Below, one piece after another: positions 25,355 through 37,876 of a stretch of 64,000 nt of DNA. Origin of the DNA: Anabaena sp. PCC 7108 (lineage in GTDB: Bacteria > Cyanobacteriota > Cyanobacteriia > Cyanobacteriales > Nostocaceae); contig NZ_KB235896.1 in the NCBI RefSeq assembly GCF_000332135.1, forward strand, positions 3,367,321 through 3,431,320, written 5' to 3'. Each line of letters starts with the position of its first letter. The first letter of the stretch is position 1. Below the pieces are notes generated by a model. It was not told the DNA's origin, did no database searches, and saw nothing but the letters and a program-made list of their open reading frames with translations. The position numbers were made by a program, and so were the translations under genes.

Positions 25355-25423
25355 AAGCTGGGTTTGAGTCAGAAATAATTCTAAAAAACTTAGACCCGCT
25401 CTATGCCATCCTAAATGTGGTTT

Positions 25424-25654
25424 TAGAGGGTGTTTGAAAAGTCTAAATTCATACTCTCTGGGCGATTATAAATCGCGGCTACACAGACAAAACCCACCTA
25501 CCCTTCGGGAACGCCAGAGGCGAACGTTGGTTCAGAAGCCTGGATTTTTCATTAGTTCCGAAGGAATAGGTGGAATTCACTCGTGTAGTAGCGTTCGCCC
25601 TTGGCGTTGCGGAGCAATATTATATTCGCCGAAAACTTTTCAAACATCCTCTTA
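25424..25654. mobile_element. MITE or IS remnant with GAGGRTGTTTGAAAAG ends
   Basis: The left end GAGGGTGTTTGAAAAG and the complement of the right end GAGGATGTTTGAAAAG differ at one base. Inside, a second inverted pair (CTACACAGACAAAACCCACC / GGTGGAATTCACTCGTGTAG, imperfect) and GGGAACGCC..GGCGAACG repeats leave no coding capacity. It lies in the 25355-26034 gap just upstream of the HerA cassette and looks like a non-autonomous transposon derivative. Confidence 0.72.
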
Positions 25655-25851
25655 GTGTGTATAGCAATCGGTTAATCTCGTTCATAGAGGTTTCTTCTAT
25701 TGTGTAGTAACTTTTTCTGAAACCCTTTCTCTGTAACCTTTCCAAGCTTTTTGTCTATTTTCTGTCCTGTACAGAGAAAATTAAGCTGCTTGTTTGTTAA
25801 AATACAAACTTAAATAGGCTTACTGAAAGCATTGCAGGAATCGTTCAAGAA

Positions 25852-26023
25852 GGCAGGAGGCAGAGGGCAGAGGGCAGAAGGAACCAATTGGAAAGGGATT
25901 GTGACCCCTCCCAATCGGAAGCTCCCAAATTTTCGATTTGGGAGGGGCTTCATACCCTTACTCCTTTCAGTCGTGGGCAGAGGAGACATTCCTTCTGCCT
26001 CCTGCCTCCTGCCCTCTGCCTTT
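25852..26023. repeat. Inverted heptamer arms and hairpin before the HerA cassette
   Basis: GGCAGAGGGCAGAGGGCAG (25859-25880) on the left and TGCCTCCTGCCTCCTGCCC on the right (about 25998-26023) are complementary heptamer tracts. Between them is a hairpin CTCCCAAAT / ATTTGGGAG (about 25925-25947). The element ends about 12 bases before the ATG of the HerA gene and so forms its leader. Confidence 0.6.
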
Positions 26024-26034
26024 ACCGGTGAATT

Positions 26035-28914
26035 ATGAATGAAAGCTCAGATTTTCCAAACATACTCTACATAAACCTATCCTCAGATAAGGTTAATGGT
26101 TTTATGTTTGGATTAAAAATTGCATTTATTCCCGACTTTCTTCTAGATCACACTCTTTTAGGTAAAGAACGACCAGATCGTATTCAAGAATATTTTGGTC
26201 GTTGGAATCAATTTGTATCAGGTTTATGGCGTAGTACAGAAGATGTAACCTATGCTCTCAGATTTGACCTAAATCAGACGCATAAAAATATTGATACTTA
26301 TTTTTTAGGAAGATTAAGAACTGCTGATATTCCTGAAGGTGCTATTCATGCCAATATTCTCTTGAATGATTTAGAGAGGATGTTATCATCCTTTGGTTTT
26401 GAACCTCAGTTACTAGCTAAACATGAATTACAAGACTTATCTGAAAATTATAATTATCGCTTTTCTTTAGAAGTTTCACAGCAAGAAGTGAAAACTTTCA
26501 TCAGAGAAGATACTCCTATTGTTGGGGAAAAATCTAATTCTCTTGATAGTGAATTTTCTCTGCCTAAAGAATTTATTTATCACCACCCTGAACAAAAAAT
26601 CCCCTTAAATCCTCTAGCTTTTTATGGTGTTCGCTTTTGGTGGGGGGCTGGAGGCACTTTTTTAACTCCTTTTAATGCGATCGCTTGCCAAAAATCGGCA
26701 GTTAGTGTTTTAATCTTATTAACTCCAACTGTTCTGAAAGCAGAAGAAGCAAAATTGATGTCGGACGTTGCCCGTCAATCAGAAAGTTTAGCCCAAATGC
26801 AAACCAAAGGAACGAATTTTGGTAATGCACAGGTTAACCCTTCTCAAAGCAAAACCGATCCTCAATTACGCTGGGAATCAAGACTTTATGCCGCTAATTT
26901 ACGACGATTAACCACTTATCCTTTCCTCACTACACTATTTTGTTTTTCCGATGATCAGGCAGCAGGAGAACAAGTAGCGGCAGCTTTTGCGGCTAGTATC
27001 AGAGAAGAGCGTCAAACAGAACCACCTTTAGGGGAAAGTGAACCAATTCCTTCAGGGTCTGAAATATCTCTTTATGAAAATTCCAGCCATCTTCAAAAAG
27101 TTCGCCAATATCTAATTTTTGATCCATTAATTTTAAAACTTCATAGCAAAAAAGCACCCCATGATGCTCTCAGACGATTGAGGTATTTAATGGATGCAAG
27201 AGGAGCCGGTTCAGTTTTTCGGTTTCCTATTTCCATTGAAGGAGGAGTACCGGGTATTCCTGTTAAGCAACGTCCTCCAGATTTTCATCCTGGTTCTCGT
27301 AATGAAGAAATTCCCTCAGATGCCATTGATTTGGGGAGATTTCATGTAGGTGGTAGAGCTTATCTTTCCAAAAATGCTTTTACCAAACACGCCTTAATTA
27401 CAGGATTTACAGGAAGTGGAAAAAGTAATACTAGCCTATATTTATTAGATCAGTTTTGGCGTAAATTAAAGATTCCTTTTTTAGTGATTGAGTCAGCTAA
27501 AAAAGAATATCGGGGATTGCGAAATGTAGATGTATTTCAGAATCAATTACTTATTTACACTTTGGGTAATGAAAATATTGCACCTTTAAGATTTAATCCT
27601 TTTGAACTAATTGAAGGAGTAAGAGTAGAATCTCATTTAGCCAATTTACAAACTTGTTTTGAGGGTGCATTGCCCCCTGTCGGACCCTTATCATCAATTA
27701 TTTCTGAAGGTCTAGAGGTAATTTATCGTCAATATGGTTGGAGATTAACTGATTATGGTAGATCTGCCGATCCCCGTCAGTTTCCGACTATGGAAGATTT
27801 TTATGTGACAGTGGAACAAGTATTAAAAGAAAGGGGTTATCAAGGAGAAGTAAAAAGTAATTTAGAAGCAGCAATTAAGGGCAGAATCAAGCCTTTATTA
27901 ATGGGAAGTAAGGGCTTAATGTTCAGTAGTTCTCGCTCCCATCCTAGTGCAGAAATTTTATTTAGTCATCCTGTGATTTTGGAACTTAATGACCTGAATG
28001 AACAAGATAAATCCTTAGTAATGATGTTCTTTTTAACCTTATTAAGAGAATATCGAGAACTGCACACTAGCAAAGAATTAGCTCACATTACTCTAGTAGA
28101 AGAGGCTCATAATGTTTTAGAAAATGTGGCTTCGACTGGTAATCAAGAGGGAGGAGGTTCGGATGTTAAAGCCAAGTCAGTGCAAGCATTTTGCAATATG
28201 TTGGCAGAGGTGAGAGCCTATGGTGAAGGTTTAATTATTGCTGATCAATCTCCCGAAAAATTGGCACGGGATGCAATGCGAAATACTAATGTACAAATTG
28301 CTCATCAATTAAGGGATGCTCATGATCGGGAGGCGATTGCTAATGCCATGATTATGAGCGAAGAACAAAGAGACTTTTTAGGTAAATGTGAAACAGGTAG
28401 AGCAGCAGTTTTTTATACTGGATTGCAAAAAGCCACATTCATAGATATTCCTGTTTACAAGGATAAATTACCCCCCACCTATGAAGGTAAATCAGCCATT
28501 GAAAATCGCTGGCGGGGTTTTGATGACGATCCTAGTCCTCACGTTTCTGATTTGCAAGTACGAGATTACATGAGCCAATTTATTAATAAAGAGCCAAAAA
28601 ATCTTAACTGTTCTTTATGTCAAGTTAAATGTAACTATCGTGATCGGATTTTAGAATTAGCAGAAATAAGTAAGTCAGAGTTTAAAAATGCTTTAGATAA
28701 ATTTAATCAAGCTAATTCACAAAGTAAAGTTGATGAGTTTACTAAACTTGGTAAAGTAATTTTAGAAAGCACAAATGTTAACAATATGAATAACTTGGAT
28801 TTGGCATGGTGCTATACAAAAGAAATGTGGTTTAGATTGGAAAAAGACCTTTTAGATGATGATGATAAAAAACAGTTTATGATTATTTTTACTAAAATTG
28901 TAAAGCAAGTATAA
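26035..28914 (+). CDS. HerA/DUF87-type ATP-binding protein, 959 aa
   Basis: A large HerA/FtsK-superfamily ATPase. The Walker A is GFTGSGKS (457-464). The Walker B ITLVEEAH lies at 685-692, followed by AEVRAYGEGLIIADQSPEKL (sensor-like region) and TNVQIAHQLRDAHDRE. The 450-residue N-terminal half is unlike the short HAS barrel of archaeal HerA and is unassigned. A C-terminal CxxCxxxC cluster (Cys 859, 862, 866) may bind metal. HerA ATPases form hexamers that translocate DNA, usually with a nuclease partner (NurA, SIR2 or DUF4297). No nuclease is visible beside it. Three further genes follow on the same strand. No strong ribosome-binding site is seen. Confidence 0.82.
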   Translation: MNESSDFPNILYINLSSDKVNGFMFGLKIAFIPDFLLDHTLLGKERPDRIQEYFGRWNQFVSGLWRSTEDVTYALRFDLNQTHKNIDTYFLGRLRTADIPEGAIHANILLNDLERMLSSFGFEPQLLAKHELQDLSENYNYRFSLEVSQQEVKTFIREDTPIVGEKSNSLDSEFSLPKEFIYHHPEQKIPLNPLAFYGVRFWWGAGGTFLTPFNAIACQKSAVSVLILLTPTVLKAEEAKLMSDVARQSESLAQMQTKGTNFGNAQVNPSQSKTDPQLRWESRLYAANLRRLTTYPFLTTLFCFSDDQAAGEQVAAAFAASIREERQTEPPLGESEPIPSGSEISLYENSSHLQKVRQYLIFDPLILKLHSKKAPHDALRRLRYLMDARGAGSVFRFPISIEGGVPGIPVKQRPPDFHPGSRNEEIPSDAIDLGRFHVGGRAYLSKNAFTKHALITGFTGSGKSNTSLYLLDQFWRKLKIPFLVIESAKKEYRGLRNVDVFQNQLLIYTLGNENIAPLRFNPFELIEGVRVESHLANLQTCFEGALPPVGPLSSIISEGLEVIYRQYGWRLTDYGRSADPRQFPTMEDFYVTVEQVLKERGYQGEVKSNLEAAIKGRIKPLLMGSKGLMFSSSRSHPSAEILFSHPVILELNDLNEQDKSLVMMFFLTLLREYRELHTSKELAHITLVEEAHNVLENVASTGNQEGGGSDVKAKSVQAFCNMLAEVRAYGEGLIIADQSPEKLARDAMRNTNVQIAHQLRDAHDREAIANAMIMSEEQRDFLGKCETGRAAVFYTGLQKATFIDIPVYKDKLPPTYEGKSAIENRWRGFDDDPSPHVSDLQVRDYMSQFINKEPKNLNCSLCQVKCNYRDRILELAEISKSEFKNALDKFNQANSQSKVDEFTKLGKVILESTNVNNMNNLDLAWCYTKEMWFRLEKDLLDDDDKKQFMIIFTKIVKQV

Positions 28915-28995
28915 AATTTACTTGCATCGAATGAAACCAGGTTTTATACTGATATGTATTAATAACAAAATTTTAAAGGAAAAGGTGAAAAATAA

Positions 28996-30096
28996 ATGGG
29001 AAAACAATTAATTTGGGAAGACTCCCTTCAGGAAATGTCATTCGCATCGAAGATAAAATCGATAATACCCCCCATACCCATAATACCATTCACCATTTCT
29101 ACGGTAATAGTAATTCTTGTGGCGTGCTTTTCACCTTTGAGTGTTCTTTTTCTACTGGCTATACCTGTTATAATATGGAATCTATTTACTTACATATTTG
29201 CTGCATTTACTGGTTATCATATAGTTCATAATGATCTAAAAAAAGCAATCAACAAAGGATACTACTTAAGTATAAAGGAAGCATTAGTAACGGAATATCC
29301 CCAAGGGCTTGTTTATATTTTGGAAAATGTTCTACTTCACCTTCAAAACTTTCGTATAGATTACCTCCCATTACGTGAGCAAGAGGGATGGTTGGTTTAT
29401 GGATGGCCAAACCAAACCAAATTAAAAGAAGCAGTTCGCATGGCTAAAACCCTCAGTTTAGAATGGGAAAAGCTGAATCCAACAGAGCAAAGCCAAGCAA
29501 TGGAAAATATTAGACAAAAAATTCAAACCGAGGATATGTATCTTTATGGTCCTTGGAAAAAAACGACAAAAGGTGAAATTGAATATTCTGGTCCAGGTAT
29601 TACTATTTCTCAAGACTATTATAAATTTAAGATTTACAAATACTATTATGATTATGATGATTATCAAGCAGATTTAGCTAAATCTAATGAAGGATATCGT
29701 AATCCTAGTTTAGAATTTGCTCAATCTCCTCCCAAAATTGCTTCTCAAGAAATCTCAAGTTTTACGGAGTGGGTTCAGAATAATCCAGTTATTCAAAAAT
29801 TCACTGAATCCCAGCAAAGAAAAGCTTATCAGAAATATTTATATGAGAAAGGAGTATCAGATAGTGTTGTCATGAGTTTTGCAGAGTGGGTTGAGAGTAA
29901 CCCAGTTATTCAAAAATTCACTGAATCTCAGCAAAGAAAAGCTTATCAAAAATATTTATCCGAGAAAGGAGTATCAGATAATAGTATAAACATTTTGTCC
30001 TTTGAAGAGTACATTAAACAAAATTCTGGTTTAGAGTTTTTTACTGAAGAAGAACAACAGGAGCAATATCAAAATTATCTGCGGGAGAATCAATGA
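28996..30096 (+). CDS. Membrane protein with three C-terminal motif repeats
   Basis: 366 aa. A hydrophobic hairpin at about 24-77 (IPPIPIIPFTISTVIVILVA; LFLLAIPVIIWNLFTYIFAA) is followed by a soluble region of about 175 residues that I cannot assign. Three tandem copies of a 39-41-residue motif start at residues 255, 294 and 335, with the pattern SFxEWVxxNPVIxxFT then QQRKAYQKYL. Copies 1 and 2 are nearly identical. The next gene ends in one copy of the same motif. AAGGA and AAGGTG precede the ATG. The gene overlaps the downstream one by four bases (ATGA), which indicates coupling. Confidence 0.72.
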   Translation: MGKQLIWEDSLQEMSFASKIKSIIPPIPIIPFTISTVIVILVACFSPLSVLFLLAIPVIIWNLFTYIFAAFTGYHIVHNDLKKAINKGYYLSIKEALVTEYPQGLVYILENVLLHLQNFRIDYLPLREQEGWLVYGWPNQTKLKEAVRMAKTLSLEWEKLNPTEQSQAMENIRQKIQTEDMYLYGPWKKTTKGEIEYSGPGITISQDYYKFKIYKYYYDYDDYQADLAKSNEGYRNPSLEFAQSPPKIASQEISSFTEWVQNNPVIQKFTESQQRKAYQKYLYEKGVSDSVVMSFAEWVESNPVIQKFTESQQRKAYQKYLSEKGVSDNSINILSFEEYIKQNSGLEFFTEEEQQEQYQNYLRENQ

Positions 30097-30695
30097 TTAT
30101 GGAGAATGAAACAAACACTTCCGTACAAAAAACGGCTTTAAGTTCTGCAAACCAAGAGATTCTTAAAGAACTACATCAACTTGCAAAAATGATGGATAGT
30201 GCTTTTGAGATTCCTGTGATTCGGAAATCTTTGGGAGCAGAAGCTGTTGCTGGGCTTGTGTTACCGGGATTTGGCGACATTATCACAATTTTACCTTCCT
30301 TATATATTATTTGGAGGGCTAAAATGATGGGACTTCCTAATGACAAAATCATCCCGATGTTTAGTAATATTGCTTTAGATACCGGAGTTGGTTTAGTACC
30401 TATTGTTGGTGATTTATTCGATTTTTTCTGGAAAGCTAACATTAAGAATATCAATATTATTCATACCCATTTTAACTTACCTTTCTACAACCCCAATCGC
30501 AAACAATCTCAGATAGATACCGTTCAACCGCAAATATTATCTGCGGATTCTGAGCCACAGGTTATTGTAAAAAGTTCACCTACAAAGAAACTACCTTTTG
30601 AGCAATGGTTGAAAGAAAACCCAGTTATGGTTCATTTTACTTCGGAAGAGCAGAATGAAGCCTATCAGGAATATCTCAGTCAAAATAATCATTAA
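30093..30695 (+). CDS. DUF4112 membrane protein with the shared C-terminal motif
   Basis: 200 aa; ATG 30093 overlaps the upstream stop as ATGA, and ATG 30099 is also possible. Residues 30-130 match DUF4112: MMDSAFEIPVIRKSLGAEAV, GLVLPGFGDIITILPSLYII, and ALDTGVGLVPIVGDLFDFFW then KANIKN, with two hydrophobic helices. DUF4112 has no known function. After a polar linker the protein ends (167-200) with LPFEQWLKENPVMVHFTSEE then QNEAYQEYL, one copy of the motif repeated three times in the upstream protein. This suggests the two bind the same partner or each other. Confidence 0.82.
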   Translation: MIMENETNTSVQKTALSSANQEILKELHQLAKMMDSAFEIPVIRKSLGAEAVAGLVLPGFGDIITILPSLYIIWRAKMMGLPNDKIIPMFSNIALDTGVGLVPIVGDLFDFFWKANIKNINIIHTHFNLPFYNPNRKQSQIDTVQPQILSADSEPQVIVKSSPTKKLPFEQWLKENPVMVHFTSEEQNEAYQEYLSQNNH

Positions 30696-30719
30696 TACAC
30701 AATTAATGTGAGGTAGAAA

Positions 30720-31424
30720 ATGAGTCTTGAAACTAATCAACAAAAACTTGAACAGCAAAAACTGGAGCAAGCTAAACAAGAGAAAAGTTCTACACCTAGA
30801 GACTCTCTTAATAGTGTTTATAAACTGTTAGCGCCAGAAAATAATCAAGAATTAACAGATAATAAATCTGCTCAGACAATTGATAATAGTTCAGAAAACA
30901 ATTTCATCACTGATATCGTTGAAAAACTTCCTGAATGGCGATCGCAAAGAGAGAATAAAGAATCCTCTGAAGGTACAGAAGGTACATCAGATACAGGTAG
31001 GAGATCCCTTGATCTAGTCAAAGAACAGTTAGCGCCAGAAAATAATCAATCTTTGGATGATAATCTAGATAATCCCAATGTACAACCAAATCAAGATATT
31101 TCTCCAGAGGATTCTACACCGGATGATACAGAATTAGAGAATCAGCGCCAAGATATAGAGTCAAATATGAATATAGCTCAACATGAGTCTACTAATGCTC
31201 AAGTAGAAGCTCAAAATGCTCAGAAAGAATATGAACAGGCTAATCAAGAGGCTTTAGAAGCAGAGCAAAAGCCTGATTTAGAATTAAATACCAATTGGCT
31301 CAAAAATAGAAGAGACACAGCCGAAAAAAATGCACAAGCTAAATTCGATAAAGCCACTGAAGCAGAACAGAATCTTCAAGACTTACGGAAACAATTTCAA
31401 GAATTACCAAAACCGAAAAGATGA
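30720..31424 (+). CDS. Hydrophilic coiled-coil protein with internal repeat
   Basis: 234 aa, very polar (Gln, Glu, Asn, Asp and Lys dominate), no signal or membrane segment. Two copies of a block containing LAPENNQ (about residues 36-44 and 103-111) share a 22-bp identical DNA stretch. Residues 140-228 form a long coiled coil (AQVEAQNAQKEYEQANQEAL). A GAGG ribosome-binding site precedes the ATG. It follows the DUF4112 gene by 24 bases, so it is probably the last gene of the cassette. Function is unknown; a structural or adaptor role is inferred only from composition. Confidence 0.65.
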   Translation: MSLETNQQKLEQQKLEQAKQEKSSTPRDSLNSVYKLLAPENNQELTDNKSAQTIDNSSENNFITDIVEKLPEWRSQRENKESSEGTEGTSDTGRRSLDLVKEQLAPENNQSLDDNLDNPNVQPNQDISPEDSTPDDTELENQRQDIESNMNIAQHESTNAQVEAQNAQKEYEQANQEALEAEQKPDLELNTNWLKNRRDTAEKNAQAKFDKATEAEQNLQDLRKQFQELPKPKR

Positions 31425-31556
31425 TTTTAATGGCTCTTGGTATTGAGCCGAGATAAAAGTAACCAAACCTGGTTGAGAAAGCTCTTAAATTCTCTATCAA
31501 TGCAATTGAAACAACCTGTTTAGCCACATTATCACCCGTTAAATAAATAGGGTTTC

Positions 31557-35989: not shown

Positions 35990-36145
35990 TTTAGGTGACA
36001 GGTGACAGGTGAACCAGCGCGGTCTTGGGGGTTTCCCCCATTAGCGACTGGTGAACCCGAAGGGTGACAGGTGACAGTAAGAAGTTTACCAATTACCAAT
36101 CACCTATTTCCTATTCCCTATTCCCTATTTCCACTGACAAATAAA

Positions 36146-37876
36146 ATGAATTCAGGACAACCACTAGGTTCGGTTATCGAAGGTTCACTAACTGGGGGTT
36201 TGGAAGTCAGACTACACCCAGATATTTCTGTAGAAGATATGCGGGTGGGTAAATTTTTGGTGGTACAGGGGATGCGATCGCGCTTTTTCTGTATGCTGAC
36301 AGATGTAGCTTTAGGTGCTGCGAATACACGTATTGTTGCTAGTCCCCCCAGTTGGGAAGATACATTTTTGCGCGAGGTGTTAGCTGGAAGCGGAACCTAT
36401 GGAATGGTCAACCTCGCACCAATGTTGATGTTTACCCCAGAATCTCATGAATCTTTCTCCTCCCCTAATGGTAAATCTGTAAATTCATTTGTTCCGTCTT
36501 TCAAGGGTTTAGCGTCATTTCAACCGCAAACCAGCACAACAATGGAACTGCTACCTGTAAAAACCATTCCCAGTCACTTTAGCCAAGTTTACGACGCGAA
36601 TGAAGATGATTTTCGGCGGGTATTTGGTTGGGAAGATGATCCCCACAGAAACAACTTTTCTATCGGAAAACCCTTAGATATGGATGTGCCGATTTGTATT
36701 GATTTAAATCGGTTTGTAGAACGAAGTAATGGCGTTTTTGGTAAATCAGGGACTGGGAAATCTTTCCTGACACGCTTACTTTTAGCGGGTATAATTCGCA
36801 AAAATGCCGCTGTTAACTTGATTTTTGATATGCACTCAGAATATGGCTGGGAAGCAGTTGCAGAAGGTAAAGAAGTTAACACCGTCAAAGGTTTAAAACA
36901 ATTATTTCCCGGTAAAGTCGAAGTTTATACTCTTGACCCCGAATCAACTAAACGTAGGGGTGTACGTGATGCTCAAGAACTATATCTAAGCTATGAGCAA
37001 ATTGAAGTTGAAGATATTAAATTATGTGGAAGAGATTTAGGACTTTCAGAAGCAGCTTTAGATAATGCCAATATCTTATGCAACGAGTTAGGTAAATCTT
37101 GGATTCCTCAGTTATTCAATATGACTAGTGAGGATATTAAGATGTTTTGTGATGACAAGCCAGGACACCCAGGCTCAATTACATCTTTACAACGTAAGCT
37201 ACTACGTTTAGATAGTCTAAAATATATGCGGGCAGTTTGTCCCCAAAATTATATTAGTAAAATCCTACAATCTTTAGAAGCTGGGAAAAATGTAGTGATT
37301 GAATTTGGTTCCCAGTCAAATATGCTATCCTATATGTTGGTGACAAATATGATCACCAGACGCATTCACGAACATTATGTCAAAAGAGCAGATCGGTTTC
37401 TGCAAAGTAAGAATCCTTTAGATAGACCAACGCCATTAATGATTACAATTGAGGAAGCTCACCGCTTTCTTGACCCAGGAGTGGTACAAAGTACAATTTT
37501 TGGAACCATAGCCCGCGAACTGCGGAAATATTTCGTAACACTTTTAGTAGTTGATCAACGTCCTTCGGGGATAGATAATGAAGTTATGTCCCAAATTGGG
37601 ACTCGCATCACAGCATTGCTGAACGACGAAAAAGATATTGATGCAATTTTTACAGGTGTATCTGGTGCTGGGGCTTTACGCTCAGTATTAGCAAAGTTAG
37701 ACTCCAAGCAACAAGCATTAATTTTAGGTCACGCCGTTCCCATGCCAGTAGTTGTACGTACCCGTCCCTATGACTCAGTATTTTACACGGAAATGGGCGA
37801 CCAAGCCTGGGAAGAAAAATCAGATGCAGAAGTTTTCGCAGCGGCAGAACTAGCTAAAGCTGATTTAGGTTTTTAA
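36146..37876 (+). CDS. HerA-like (DUF87) ATPase, cyanobacterial type
   Basis: 576 aa from MNSGQPLGSVIEGSLTGGLE; the in-frame start at 36071 encodes 25 residues of repeat-derived sequence. An N-terminal HAS-barrel-like domain (MRVGKFLVVQGMRSRFFCML) precedes the RecA-like motor: Walker A GKSGTGKS (199-206), DMHSEYGW, and Walker B LMITIEEAHRFLDPG, then VDQRPSGIDNEVMSQIGTRI, the usual HerA sensor/Arg region. Cyanobacterial homologues are stand-alone and of unknown function; DNA translocation or repair is inferred. It differs clearly from the 959-aa ATPase at 26035. Confidence 0.87.
   Translation: MNSGQPLGSVIEGSLTGGLEVRLHPDISVEDMRVGKFLVVQGMRSRFFCMLTDVALGAANTRIVASPPSWEDTFLREVLAGSGTYGMVNLAPMLMFTPESHESFSSPNGKSVNSFVPSFKGLASFQPQTSTTMELLPVKTIPSHFSQVYDANEDDFRRVFGWEDDPHRNNFSIGKPLDMDVPICIDLNRFVERSNGVFGKSGTGKSFLTRLLLAGIIRKNAAVNLIFDMHSEYGWEAVAEGKEVNTVKGLKQLFPGKVEVYTLDPESTKRRGVRDAQELYLSYEQIEVEDIKLCGRDLGLSEAALDNANILCNELGKSWIPQLFNMTSEDIKMFCDDKPGHPGSITSLQRKLLRLDSLKYMRAVCPQNYISKILQSLEAGKNVVIEFGSQSNMLSYMLVTNMITRRIHEHYVKRADRFLQSKNPLDRPTPLMITIEEAHRFLDPGVVQSTIFGTIARELRKYFVTLLVVDQRPSGIDNEVMSQIGTRITALLNDEKDIDAIFTGVSGAGALRSVLAKLDSKQQALILGHAVPMPVVVRTRPYDSVFYTEMGDQAWEEKSDAEVFAAAELAKADLGF

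What the first reader, a model, noticed from the sequence alone, without database searches (positions are those of the whole stretch)
26035..31424. Four-gene HerA / motif-repeat membrane protein / DUF4112 / coiled-coil cassette
Seen: four same-strand genes, with two overlapping by ATGA and the others 24-81 bases apart, bounded by a MITE and repeat tract on the left and the opposite-strand lyase terminator on the right. The first is a 959-aa HerA-type ATPase with a large unassigned N-terminal half and a CxxCxxxC tail. The next two are membrane proteins sharing a C-terminal motif; the last is a polar coiled-coil protein. Known: HerA ATPases work with a nuclease or effector (NurA, SIR2, DUF4297) in repair or phage defence. 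Here no nuclease is seen and membrane proteins take its place. Inference: an ATP-driven complex recruited to the membrane, possibly a defence or DNA-transfer system with a membrane effector.
Basis: partly seen in the sequence, partly recalled or inferred. Interest (0 to 1): 0.78.

Follow-up and report, generated by a model that had tools for sequence, protein, structure and literature searches.

The report
Mobile VirB4/HerA-like ATPase effector-handling cassette
A horizontally acquired four-gene island in a cyanobacterium encodes a DNA/protein-pump-type ATPase with an unclassified N-terminal half plus membrane and polar partner proteins, and some relatives of the ATPase elsewhere sit beside bacterial toxin or immunity genes, so it may drive export of effector proteins rather than work with a nuclease.

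Summary
The four genes are real and lie as described. They form a low-GC island: in 3 of 4 congeners the flanking genes are 55-251 bp apart without it. A has intact Walker motifs and a conserved Cys triad but is not a canonical HerA: it lacks the HAS-barrel that a true HerA 4.6 kb downstream has, and its N-terminal half matches no Pfam or PDB sequence family. B and C share a 32-residue motif found only four times in the genome. Close A relatives occur in 3 of 388 genomes of the order, this one included, and in Chloroflexi and Obscuribacterales MAGs; A, a polar gene and B lie together in Symploca. Beside 4 of 28 ATPase loci read lie a partial toxin-4 domain, a HINT-toxin-like protein, an RHS-like protein with Imm49, or a tagged C39/C70 peptidase. 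I read the cassette as a stand-alone VirB4/HerA-like effector-handling, probably export, system. The window itself shows no recognisable toxin or immunity domain. A 2024 paper described EccE3/VirB4-like ATPases in CoCoNuT operons and suggested mobilisation or secretion; the toxin link is the new part.

The parts
25366..31556 (.). island: stretch missing from 3 of 4 congeners, between the M50 peptidase gene and the CpeS lyase gene
   Evidence: blastn against L093, L094, L095: flanks 90.8-92.2% identical, aligned ends 251, 138 and 55 bp apart; GC 0.336-0.372 in 26-31 kb against 0.395-0.485 in 22-26 kb and 0.371-0.408 in 31-35 kb
25425..25652 (.). MITE-like element, 18-nt terminal inverted repeats
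   Evidence: I5, 94% complementary, 192 nt apart
25848..26022 (.). second inverted-repeat tract just upstream of A
   Evidence: I1-I4, I7
26035..28914 (+). gene A: 959-aa VirB4/HerA-like ATPase
26035..27339 (+). N-terminal half of A (residues 1-435), no known sequence family
   Evidence: best Pfam E 0.025 among 8 members and best PDB E 0.8 with profile A6; conserved in Symploca, Chloroflexi and Obscuribacterales relatives
27403..27426 (+). Walker A, GFTGSGKS (residues 457-464)
   Evidence: sequence; G457, G460, G462, K463 invariant
28096..28110 (+). Walker B region, VEEAH (residues 688-692)
   Evidence: sequence; E689 E690 A691 H692 invariant
28609..28632 (+). Cys triad C859-x2-C-x3-C866, probable metal site
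   Evidence: invariant in the 4 A-type rows; a similar Cys cluster in the Priestia protein (sequence read)
28996..30096 (+). gene B: membrane protein with three copies of the 32-aa motif
   Evidence: homologue in Symploca, 27% identity, BLASTP E 7e-36 without composition correction
29758..29853 (+). motif copy 1 (B)
29875..29970 (+). motif copy 2 (B)
29998..30093 (+). motif copy 3 (B)
30093..30695 (+). gene C: DUF4112 protein with one C-terminal motif copy
30594..30689 (+). motif copy 4 (C)
30720..31424 (+). gene D: polar coiled-coil protein with two internal repeats, no recognised toxin domain
30798..30863 (+). D internal repeat 1 (RDSLNSVYKLLAPENNQELTDN)
   Evidence: sequence, by eye
30999..31064 (+). 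D internal repeat 2 (RRSLDLVKEQLAPENNQSLDDN)
   Evidence: sequence, by eye

Best explanation
A mobile accessory cassette built round a VirB4/HerA-like pump, hexameric by analogy. A hydrolyses ATP. B (and probably C) lie in the membrane and carry a cassette-specific motif that I take to be a docking tag for the ATPase or for each other. The ATPase then moves or assembles polar/effector proteins (D here) at or across the membrane, as some relatives may do with polymorphic toxins. Shown: the genes, ATPase motifs, cassette-specific motif, island status, A-B linkage in one other genome, and toxin, immunity or peptidase genes beside some relatives. Inferred: ATP hydrolysis, hexamer, docking role of the motif, transport, and that D is the cargo.
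For: Foldseek with the A model (pLDDT 67) puts the T4SS ATPase TrwK/VirB4 in its first five rows, aligned over the whole length (8rtd, E 1.2e-13, 944 columns, TM only 0.24-0.28), ahead of HerA-SIR2 and HerA-NurA chains; VirB4 C-terminal chains 4ag5/4ag6 have target-TM 0.67-0.72 against 0.52-0.55 for the longer HerA chains 4d2i. Best NCBIfam hit is the DNA-import ATPase CedD, E 1.2e-17. Neighbours: a protein with a partial Ntox4 match (E 3.7e-12, profile 1-47 of 109) beside an A-type pseudogene in G237; Imm49 (E 1.4e-47) between another protein and the ATPase in G966, the only Imm49 over cut-off in 251 Chloroflexota genomes; the end of that other protein resembles part of an RHS protein (29%, E 5e-10); a protein 43% identical over 102 residues to a polymorphic-toxin HINT protein (E 1e-12) in L015; a C39/C70 peptidase (E 2.8e-13) in L053. 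Ntox4 is rare: 4 of 376 genomes of the order. Short shared tags recur in adjacent genes: L053 gene 2 to 3 (10.3 bits) and 2+3 to 4 (28.0), window B to C (36.2), each with 0 of 5000 shuffles as high (seeds were picked by eye).
Against: The window has no recognised toxin or immunity domain. The window motif is not in D (262 of 2000 shuffles score as high) nor in the Symploca polar protein, two L053, one L073 and one L060 protein tested, so a common signal is not shown. D's repeats do not match the G237 protein (100 of 548 reported shuffles at least as high); the two share only a low-complexity KLEQQKLEQ start (BLASTP E 0.001). By sequence profile the nearest PDB chains are HerA, with no VirB4 at E<=0.01 (4d2i, E 6e-11), and hhalign to R388 VirB4 is weak and core-only (probability 1.9%). 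Toxin-type neighbours are database-backed in 4 of 28 ATPase loci read; most neighbours were not scanned and the scanned ones were chosen after reading. The Ntox4 match is partial and its ATPase neighbour is broken; the L015 protein has no toxin family in Pfam or NCBIfam; a C39 peptidase can be a processing enzyme. No channel component was found. The A model has low confidence and the B model is poor (pLDDT 54).
Confidence: 0.42

Rival explanations
1. Anti-phage defence: the ATPase senses invading DNA and triggers a membrane effector (B or C) that depolarises the cell, a HerA system with a membrane effector in place of SIR2/DUF4297.
For: PADLOC HerA and mad8 models hit A (best E 1.5e-11 and 2.6e-11); the cassette is a sporadic low-GC island; a profile search also finds antiphage HerA chains (8xau E 3.6e-4, 8j4u E 4.2e-4).
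Against: The PADLOC hits cover the ATPase region only and the true HerA nearby scores much higher (E 5.8e-32); NCBIfam HerA_antiphage 16.8 bits against a cut-off of 800; no HAS-barrel; no known effector; one relative sits beside an immunity protein of the intercellular toxin type.
Confidence: 0.25
2. DNA transfer: a Ced- or T4SS-like DNA import/export ATPase with its own membrane channel proteins B and C.
For: Best NCBIfam hit CedD; Foldseek to TrwK/VirB4; a sub-cut-off TrwB_AAD_bind hit on A (E 0.016, 14.6 bits against 20.5); membrane partners. CedD is needed for DNA import in Saccharolobus (PMC11868833, abstract and passages).
Against: 63.8 bits against CedD's cut-off of 600; no relaxase, pilin, VirB6/8/9/10 or VirD4 family over its cut-off among the 4 cassette and 11 flanking proteins scanned; toxin/immunity neighbours are not explained.
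Confidence: 0.13
3. An extension module of TerY/CoCoNuT-type restriction or stress systems, here left alone; the ATPase serves phosphorylation-regulated conflict responses.
For: The Obscuribacterales relative L054 lies beside VWA-, PP2C- and kinase-like ORFs (read, assigned by eye, no family search run on them); a cyanobacterial relative lies beside an FHA protein (E 1.7e-10). PMC11090510 (section 10 read) describes a FtsK/HerA member with an EccE3-like N-terminal domain and a VirB4-like ATPase domain in operons with duplicated VWA genes and suggests mobilisation or secretion.
Against: No VWA, McrB/McrC-like or kinase family hit in the cassette or the flanks scanned; homology with that published family could not be tested.
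Confidence: 0.12
4. Chance assembly: a stand-alone ATPase gene with unrelated mobile genes beside it.
For: The four-gene set was not seen whole elsewhere; B absent from 3 of 5 A-type genomes.
Against: Cassette-specific motif shared by B and C; A-polar-B order in Symploca; ATGA overlap and short gaps.
Confidence: 0.08

Closest known systems
VirB4/TrwK ATPases of type IV secretion systems
   Same: First five Foldseek rows, aligned over the whole length
   Different: TM low on a low-confidence model; no sequence similarity of the N-terminal half found; no other T4SS family in the cassette
CedD/CedB of the crenarchaeal Ced system
   Same: Best NCBIfam hit (CedD, E 1.2e-17); HerA/VirB4-like core with an unknown N-terminal domain (PMC11868833 passages)
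   Different: Far below the family cut-off; CedD has a transmembrane domain, A only a marginal hydrophobic stretch; other partners; CedA not searched for
HerA (HerA-NurA, SIR2-HerA, DUF4297-HerA)
   Same: DUF87 ATPase core; nearest PDB chains by sequence profile
   Different: No HAS-barrel, no NurA/SIR2/DUF4297 partner seen; a true HerA lies at 36071-37876
EccE3-HerA/VirB4-like ATPases of compound Type III-A CoCoNuT operons (PMC11090510)
   Same: Published as EccE3-like N-terminal domain plus VirB4-like ATPase, secretion or mobilisation suggested (section read); VWA-like ORFs also stand by relative L054 (by eye)
   Different: Stand-alone cassette with motif-bearing membrane proteins; EccE3 did not show among the 50 Foldseek rows printed; direct homology untested
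Polymorphic toxin systems (PMC3482391, passages)
   Same: Some relatives of the ATPase stand by a partial Ntox4, Imm49, or HINT/RHS-toxin-like proteins
   Different: No toxin or immunity domain in the window; in the passages seen FtsK/HerA appears only as the T7SS motor

Membership tests
HerA | HAS-barrel N-terminal domain | tested here: not met
   Absent from A at E<=10; present in the window's true HerA at E 2.3e-9
HerA | DUF87 ATPase core with Walker A and B | tested here: met
   PF01935 E 4.4e-9, 37.2 bits over cut-off 23.2; conserved motifs
HerA | score over the NCBIfam HerA equivalog cut-offs | tested here: not met
   16.8-19.3 bits against 800-970
HerA | NurA, SIR2 or DUF4297 nuclease/effector partner | tested here: not met
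   None in the 3 partner genes or in 11 flanking ORFs by Pfam and 10 of these by PADLOC; rest of genome not searched
Ced system (CedD) | score over the CedD equivalog cut-off | tested here: not met
   63.8 against 600 bits
Type IV secretion system | VirB4-like fold of the ATPase | tested here: inconclusive
   First five Foldseek rows are VirB4 but TM 0.23-0.31 over full length on a low-confidence model; sequence comparison core-only and weak
Type IV secretion system | channel/coupling genes (VirB6, 8, 9, 10, VirD4) in the locus | tested here: not met
   No such Pfam family over its cut-off in 4 cassette and 11 flanking proteins; rest of genome not searched
Polymorphic toxin system | toxin domain and immunity gene in the locus | tested here: not met
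   None in the window cassette; toxin- or immunity-type neighbours beside relatives G237, G966, L015
Type VII secretion system | WXG100 substrates and multi-domain FtsK-type EssC/EccC | tested here: not met
   Single ATPase domain, no WXG100 hit in B, C or D
CoCoNuT-associated EccE3-HerA ATPase | EccE3-like N-terminal domain | tested here: inconclusive
   No Pfam or PDB sequence match for the N-terminal half; EccE3 not among the 50 Foldseek rows printed of 640
CoCoNuT system | McrB/McrC-like and coiled-coil nuclease genes | tested here: not met
   None in the cassette or scanned flanks
HerA-type anti-phage defence | protection against phage | not testable with these tools
   needs plaque assays

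The most novel reading that the evidence does not exclude
An undescribed effector-export machine of free-living bacteria: a VirB4/HerA-like ATPase with its own N-terminal domain recognises a short tag that differs from locus to locus (32-aa motif here, a KLSxxGIAAMQG-like tag in the Chloroflexi locus) and drives tagged polymorphic toxins, peptidases and membrane proteins to or through the envelope, including toxin domains that other cyanobacteria seem to deliver by PVC-type injection systems.
Probability: 0.3. Interest if true: 0.82.

Novelty: new variant of a known kind. Interest (0 to 1): 0.58.

Why it matters
If the reading holds, a widespread branch of pump ATPases that public records label DUF87, ATP-binding or hypothetical would include export motors for antagonistic effectors in cyanobacteria and Chloroflexota. 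It would also give the secretion idea that the CoCoNuT paper left open a direct test, because Imm49 and toxin-like proteins sit beside some of these ATPases.

Tried and rejected
Rejected: canonical HerA (no HAS-barrel); SIR2/DUF4297-type defence (no partner seen). D as a recognisable toxin: no domain. A common tag across loci: the window motif is not found in D, the Symploca polar protein or the L053, L060 and L073 proteins tested. Homology of D's repeats to the G237 Ntox4 protein: not supported. Tag of L053 gene 1: borderline, 1 of 5000 shuffles at least as high.

Led nowhere: viral-contig scan with A3 (84 candidate stretches, none confirmed); plasmid search with B and with the A N-terminal half (no match); plasmid search with L079 and L053 effector-like proteins (no match); NCBIfam on ten effector/immunity candidates (nothing meaningful); fold of B (pLDDT 54), not searched further; phage records hold only core-level hits in 2 unannotated contigs; plasmids hold core-level hits in 43 records, none covering 80% of A. 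The ORF picked just downstream of the ATPase was more polar than background (26 loci, 307 background ORFs, Mann-Whitney p 0.0025), but that choice of ORFs is crude (some picked in GC-rich loci look spurious) and the window's own next gene is average. The first try of that script failed.

Papers: in the rows listed by searches I saw none whose title or abstract links this ATPase family to polymorphic toxins. Several searches matched more papers than they listed (for example 12 listed of 305), and only a held open-access library was searched, so this is no proof of absence.
Full report
OBSERVATION. A carries DUF87 (E 4.4e-9), C carries DUF4112 (E 7.2e-30), B and D have no Pfam family over its cut-off. 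Walker A (GFTGSGKS) and VEEAH are intact and conserved; C859, C862 and C866 are invariant in four A-type proteins.

MOTIF. B ends in three copies and C in one copy of a 32-residue motif. A profile of the B copies finds C at 36.8 bits; the best of 5000 shuffles of C gives 7.6. A profile of six copies finds exactly four places in the whole genome at E<=1, B three times and C once, E 7.5e-19 to 1.6e-15. The Symploca B also carries it (18.6 bits, 0 of 5000 shuffles as high). In the poor B model each copy is mainly a pair of helices with block pLDDT about 60-83. The motif is not in D: 262 of 2000 shuffles score as high.

ISLAND. In three congeners (G293, G294, G295) the M50 peptidase gene and the CpeS lyase gene, 90.8-92.2% identical to the window, have aligned ends 138, 55 and 251 bp apart; in the fourth (G292) only the lyase side aligned in the stretch fetched. 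GC in 26-31 kb is 0.336-0.372, against 0.395-0.485 in 22-26 kb and 0.371-0.408 in 31-35 kb. MITE-like inverted repeats stand at the left edge. So the cassette looks like an acquired island in this strain.

WHAT A IS. NCBIfam's best hit is CedD (E 1.2e-17, 63.8 bits, cut-off 600), the second a serine-rich subfamily (NF033849, 55.8 bits, cut-off 650); HerA equivalogs score 17-19 bits against 800-970. A true HerA, with HAS-barrel (E 2.3e-9) and DUF87 (E 7.7e-32), lies at 36071-37876 and shares with A only a short core stretch (BLASTP E 2e-5). The AlphaFold model of A has mean pLDDT 67 and pTM 0.47. Foldseek's first five rows are TrwK/VirB4 of R388 (best E 1.2e-13, 944 columns, TM 0.24-0.28), then HerA-SIR2 and HerA-NurA; VirB4 C-terminal chains give target-TM 0.67-0.72, DndH-C 0.68, the longer HerA chains 4d2i 0.52-0.55. 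Against this, a sequence profile finds HerA-type chains (best 6e-11) and no VirB4 at E<=0.01, and hhalign to TrwK is core-only at 1.9% probability. The N-terminal half has no Pfam or PDB relative by sequence (best E 0.025 among 8 members and 0.8). I therefore call A a VirB4/HerA-like pump with an unclassified N-terminal domain.

DISTRIBUTION. With the whole A protein 10 of 292 genomes of the phylum match, own included, mostly at 35-41% in the core; in the genus 3 of 5 match, but only the window's own copy is A-type. With the N-terminal half 6 of 388 genomes of the order match, 3 of them strongly (own, G595, G237). A scan of GTDB contigs confirmed 10 loci of 44 candidate stretches, among them Symploca (65%; the same contig as G595), a Chloroflexi MAG (42%) and an Obscuribacterales MAG (40%), the last two over nearly the whole length. 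A tree of 24 ATPase cores holds window, Symploca, Chloroflexi and Obscuribacterales as one clade (100/100), apart from clades that I label FHA-linked, HEAT-linked (with the own-genome paralogue), Hsp70-linked and Chloroflexota (each 100/100); L072, L079 and L080 are long branches of unsure place, and L013, L018, L057 and L061 were not in it. B was found in 2 of 13 genomes searched, own and G595, that is in 2 of the 5 with A-type genes. A protein like C is in 214 of 217 family genomes, so C's family is ordinary; only its motif-bearing copy here is not.

NEIGHBOURS OF RELATIVES. I read the genes round 28 ATPase loci, the window included. Database-backed toxin, immunity or peptidase neighbours were found in 4 of them. 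(1) G237/L013: behind an A-type fragment with a stop, a protein at 12308-12865 matches Ntox4 in its last third, profile 1-47 of 109 (E 3.7e-12). Ntox4 is in 4 of 376 genomes of the order. Of the other three copies, one lies in an ORF with a HELTHVVQQ motif and one in an ORF with an NDPAEKEAD stretch, which I take, by eye and recall, for the PVC/DUF4157 kind; PMC3482391 lists Ntox4 under PVC delivery (passage). (2) G966/L076: a protein with two internal repeats (by eye), whose end resembles part of an RHS protein (29%, E 5e-10), then Imm49 (E 1.4e-47), then the ATPase; it is the only Imm49 over cut-off in 251 Chloroflexota genomes, with 2 more below it, where the ATPase family itself is in 6 of 251 at E<=1e-60. 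(3) L015: behind an FHA-clade ATPase, polar proteins and an ORF 43% identical over 102 residues to a polymorphic-toxin HINT protein (E 1e-12), with no toxin family in Pfam or NCBIfam. (4) L053, an A-clade Chloroflexi locus: consecutive genes share a KLSxxGIAAMQG-like tag; gene 3 is a C39/C70-type peptidase (E 2.8e-13 and 9.5e-8); the tag of genes 2 and 3 finds gene 4 at 28 bits with 0 of 5000 shuffles as high, gene 1 is borderline. Suggestive only: L079, where the ATPase is followed by an ORF with a sub-threshold NERD hit (E 0.068) and a YbjN/TY-Chap1-like protein (E 4.4e-6 and 2.1e-4). Polar, low-complexity proteins directly follow the ATPase in several loci, for example long repeats in Priestia, L054 and L080. 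The proteins scanned were picked after reading, and many neighbours were not scanned, so 4 of 28 is neither a rate nor an enrichment test.

MECHANISM. The simplest account is a pump that meets membrane partners through a locus-specific short tag and moves or assembles effector proteins. In the window the motif is on two proteins with hydrophobic stretches, so B and C may be the dock or pore, and D, a polar coiled-coil protein without a known domain, may be the cargo; both are inferences. Defence by a membrane effector and DNA transfer remain open; for both the window gives only ATPase-core resemblances.

WHAT IS KNOWN. PMC11090510 (section 10 read, other passages by find) reports FtsK/HerA ATPases with an EccE3-like N-terminal and a VirB4-like C-terminal domain in compound CoCoNuT operons and suggests mobilisation or secretion, noting that WXG100 genes are absent there. 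L054 of the A clade also has VWA-, PP2C- and kinase-like ORFs upstream (by eye). PMC3482391 (passages) lists polymorphic-toxin delivery modes, with FtsK/HerA only as the T7SS motor in the passages seen. PMC11868833 (abstract and passages) describes CedD. PMC12857230 and PMC7159879 (passages) gave no such system in the passages seen. Among the rows listed I saw no paper that ties this ATPase family to polymorphic toxins. I file the finding as a new variant of a known kind, with a bolder export-system reading at about 0.3.

Noticed in passing
window 36071-37876: Canonical HerA with HAS-barrel and DUF87 only 4.6 kb downstream, between a GST gene and a sigma-70 gene; no NurA among the neighbouring ORFs scanned.
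   Followed up: partly
L016:8365-11499 (own genome C2, about 2.139 Mb): A second, distant A paralogue in the same genome with two small helical proteins downstream, which recur in G074, G127 and G157; a possibly HEAT-like gene (HEAT_2 only E 0.21) lies upstream here and in G074, and downstream in G157.
   Followed up: partly
L060:3627-4739 and L073:8909-9589: Marinospirillum and Acinetobacter relatives are followed by Gly/Ala/Ser-rich hydrophobic proteins that share a 40-residue motif (25.7 and 23.3 bits, 0 of 5000 shuffles as high).
   Followed up: partly
L014, L050, L051 (L015 starts at the ATPase): FHA-clade loci share an order FHA protein - small membrane protein - about 142-aa protein - kinase-like protein(s) - ATPase - variable polar proteins, mostly assigned by eye (FHA tested in L014 only); L014 and L015 polar proteins share a GSDPFxNLR motif (22 bits, 0 of 5000 shuffles).
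   Followed up: partly
L080:5769-17847: Chloroflexota ATPase with a long EPVVDEA-repeat protein and, upstream, a tubulin-like protein (Tubulin_2, E 3e-60).
   Followed up: no
L072:8864-12271: Priestia megaterium plasmid: relative of A followed by an 1135-aa protein made largely of SEKLDDLEQK-type repeats.
   Followed up: no
BFVD G3MBM2, S5MSQ0: Bacillus phages G and JL encode proteins whose predicted folds match A over the full length with lower E-values (9.2e-18, 1.7e-17) than any PDB row; the two libraries differ in size.
   Followed up: no
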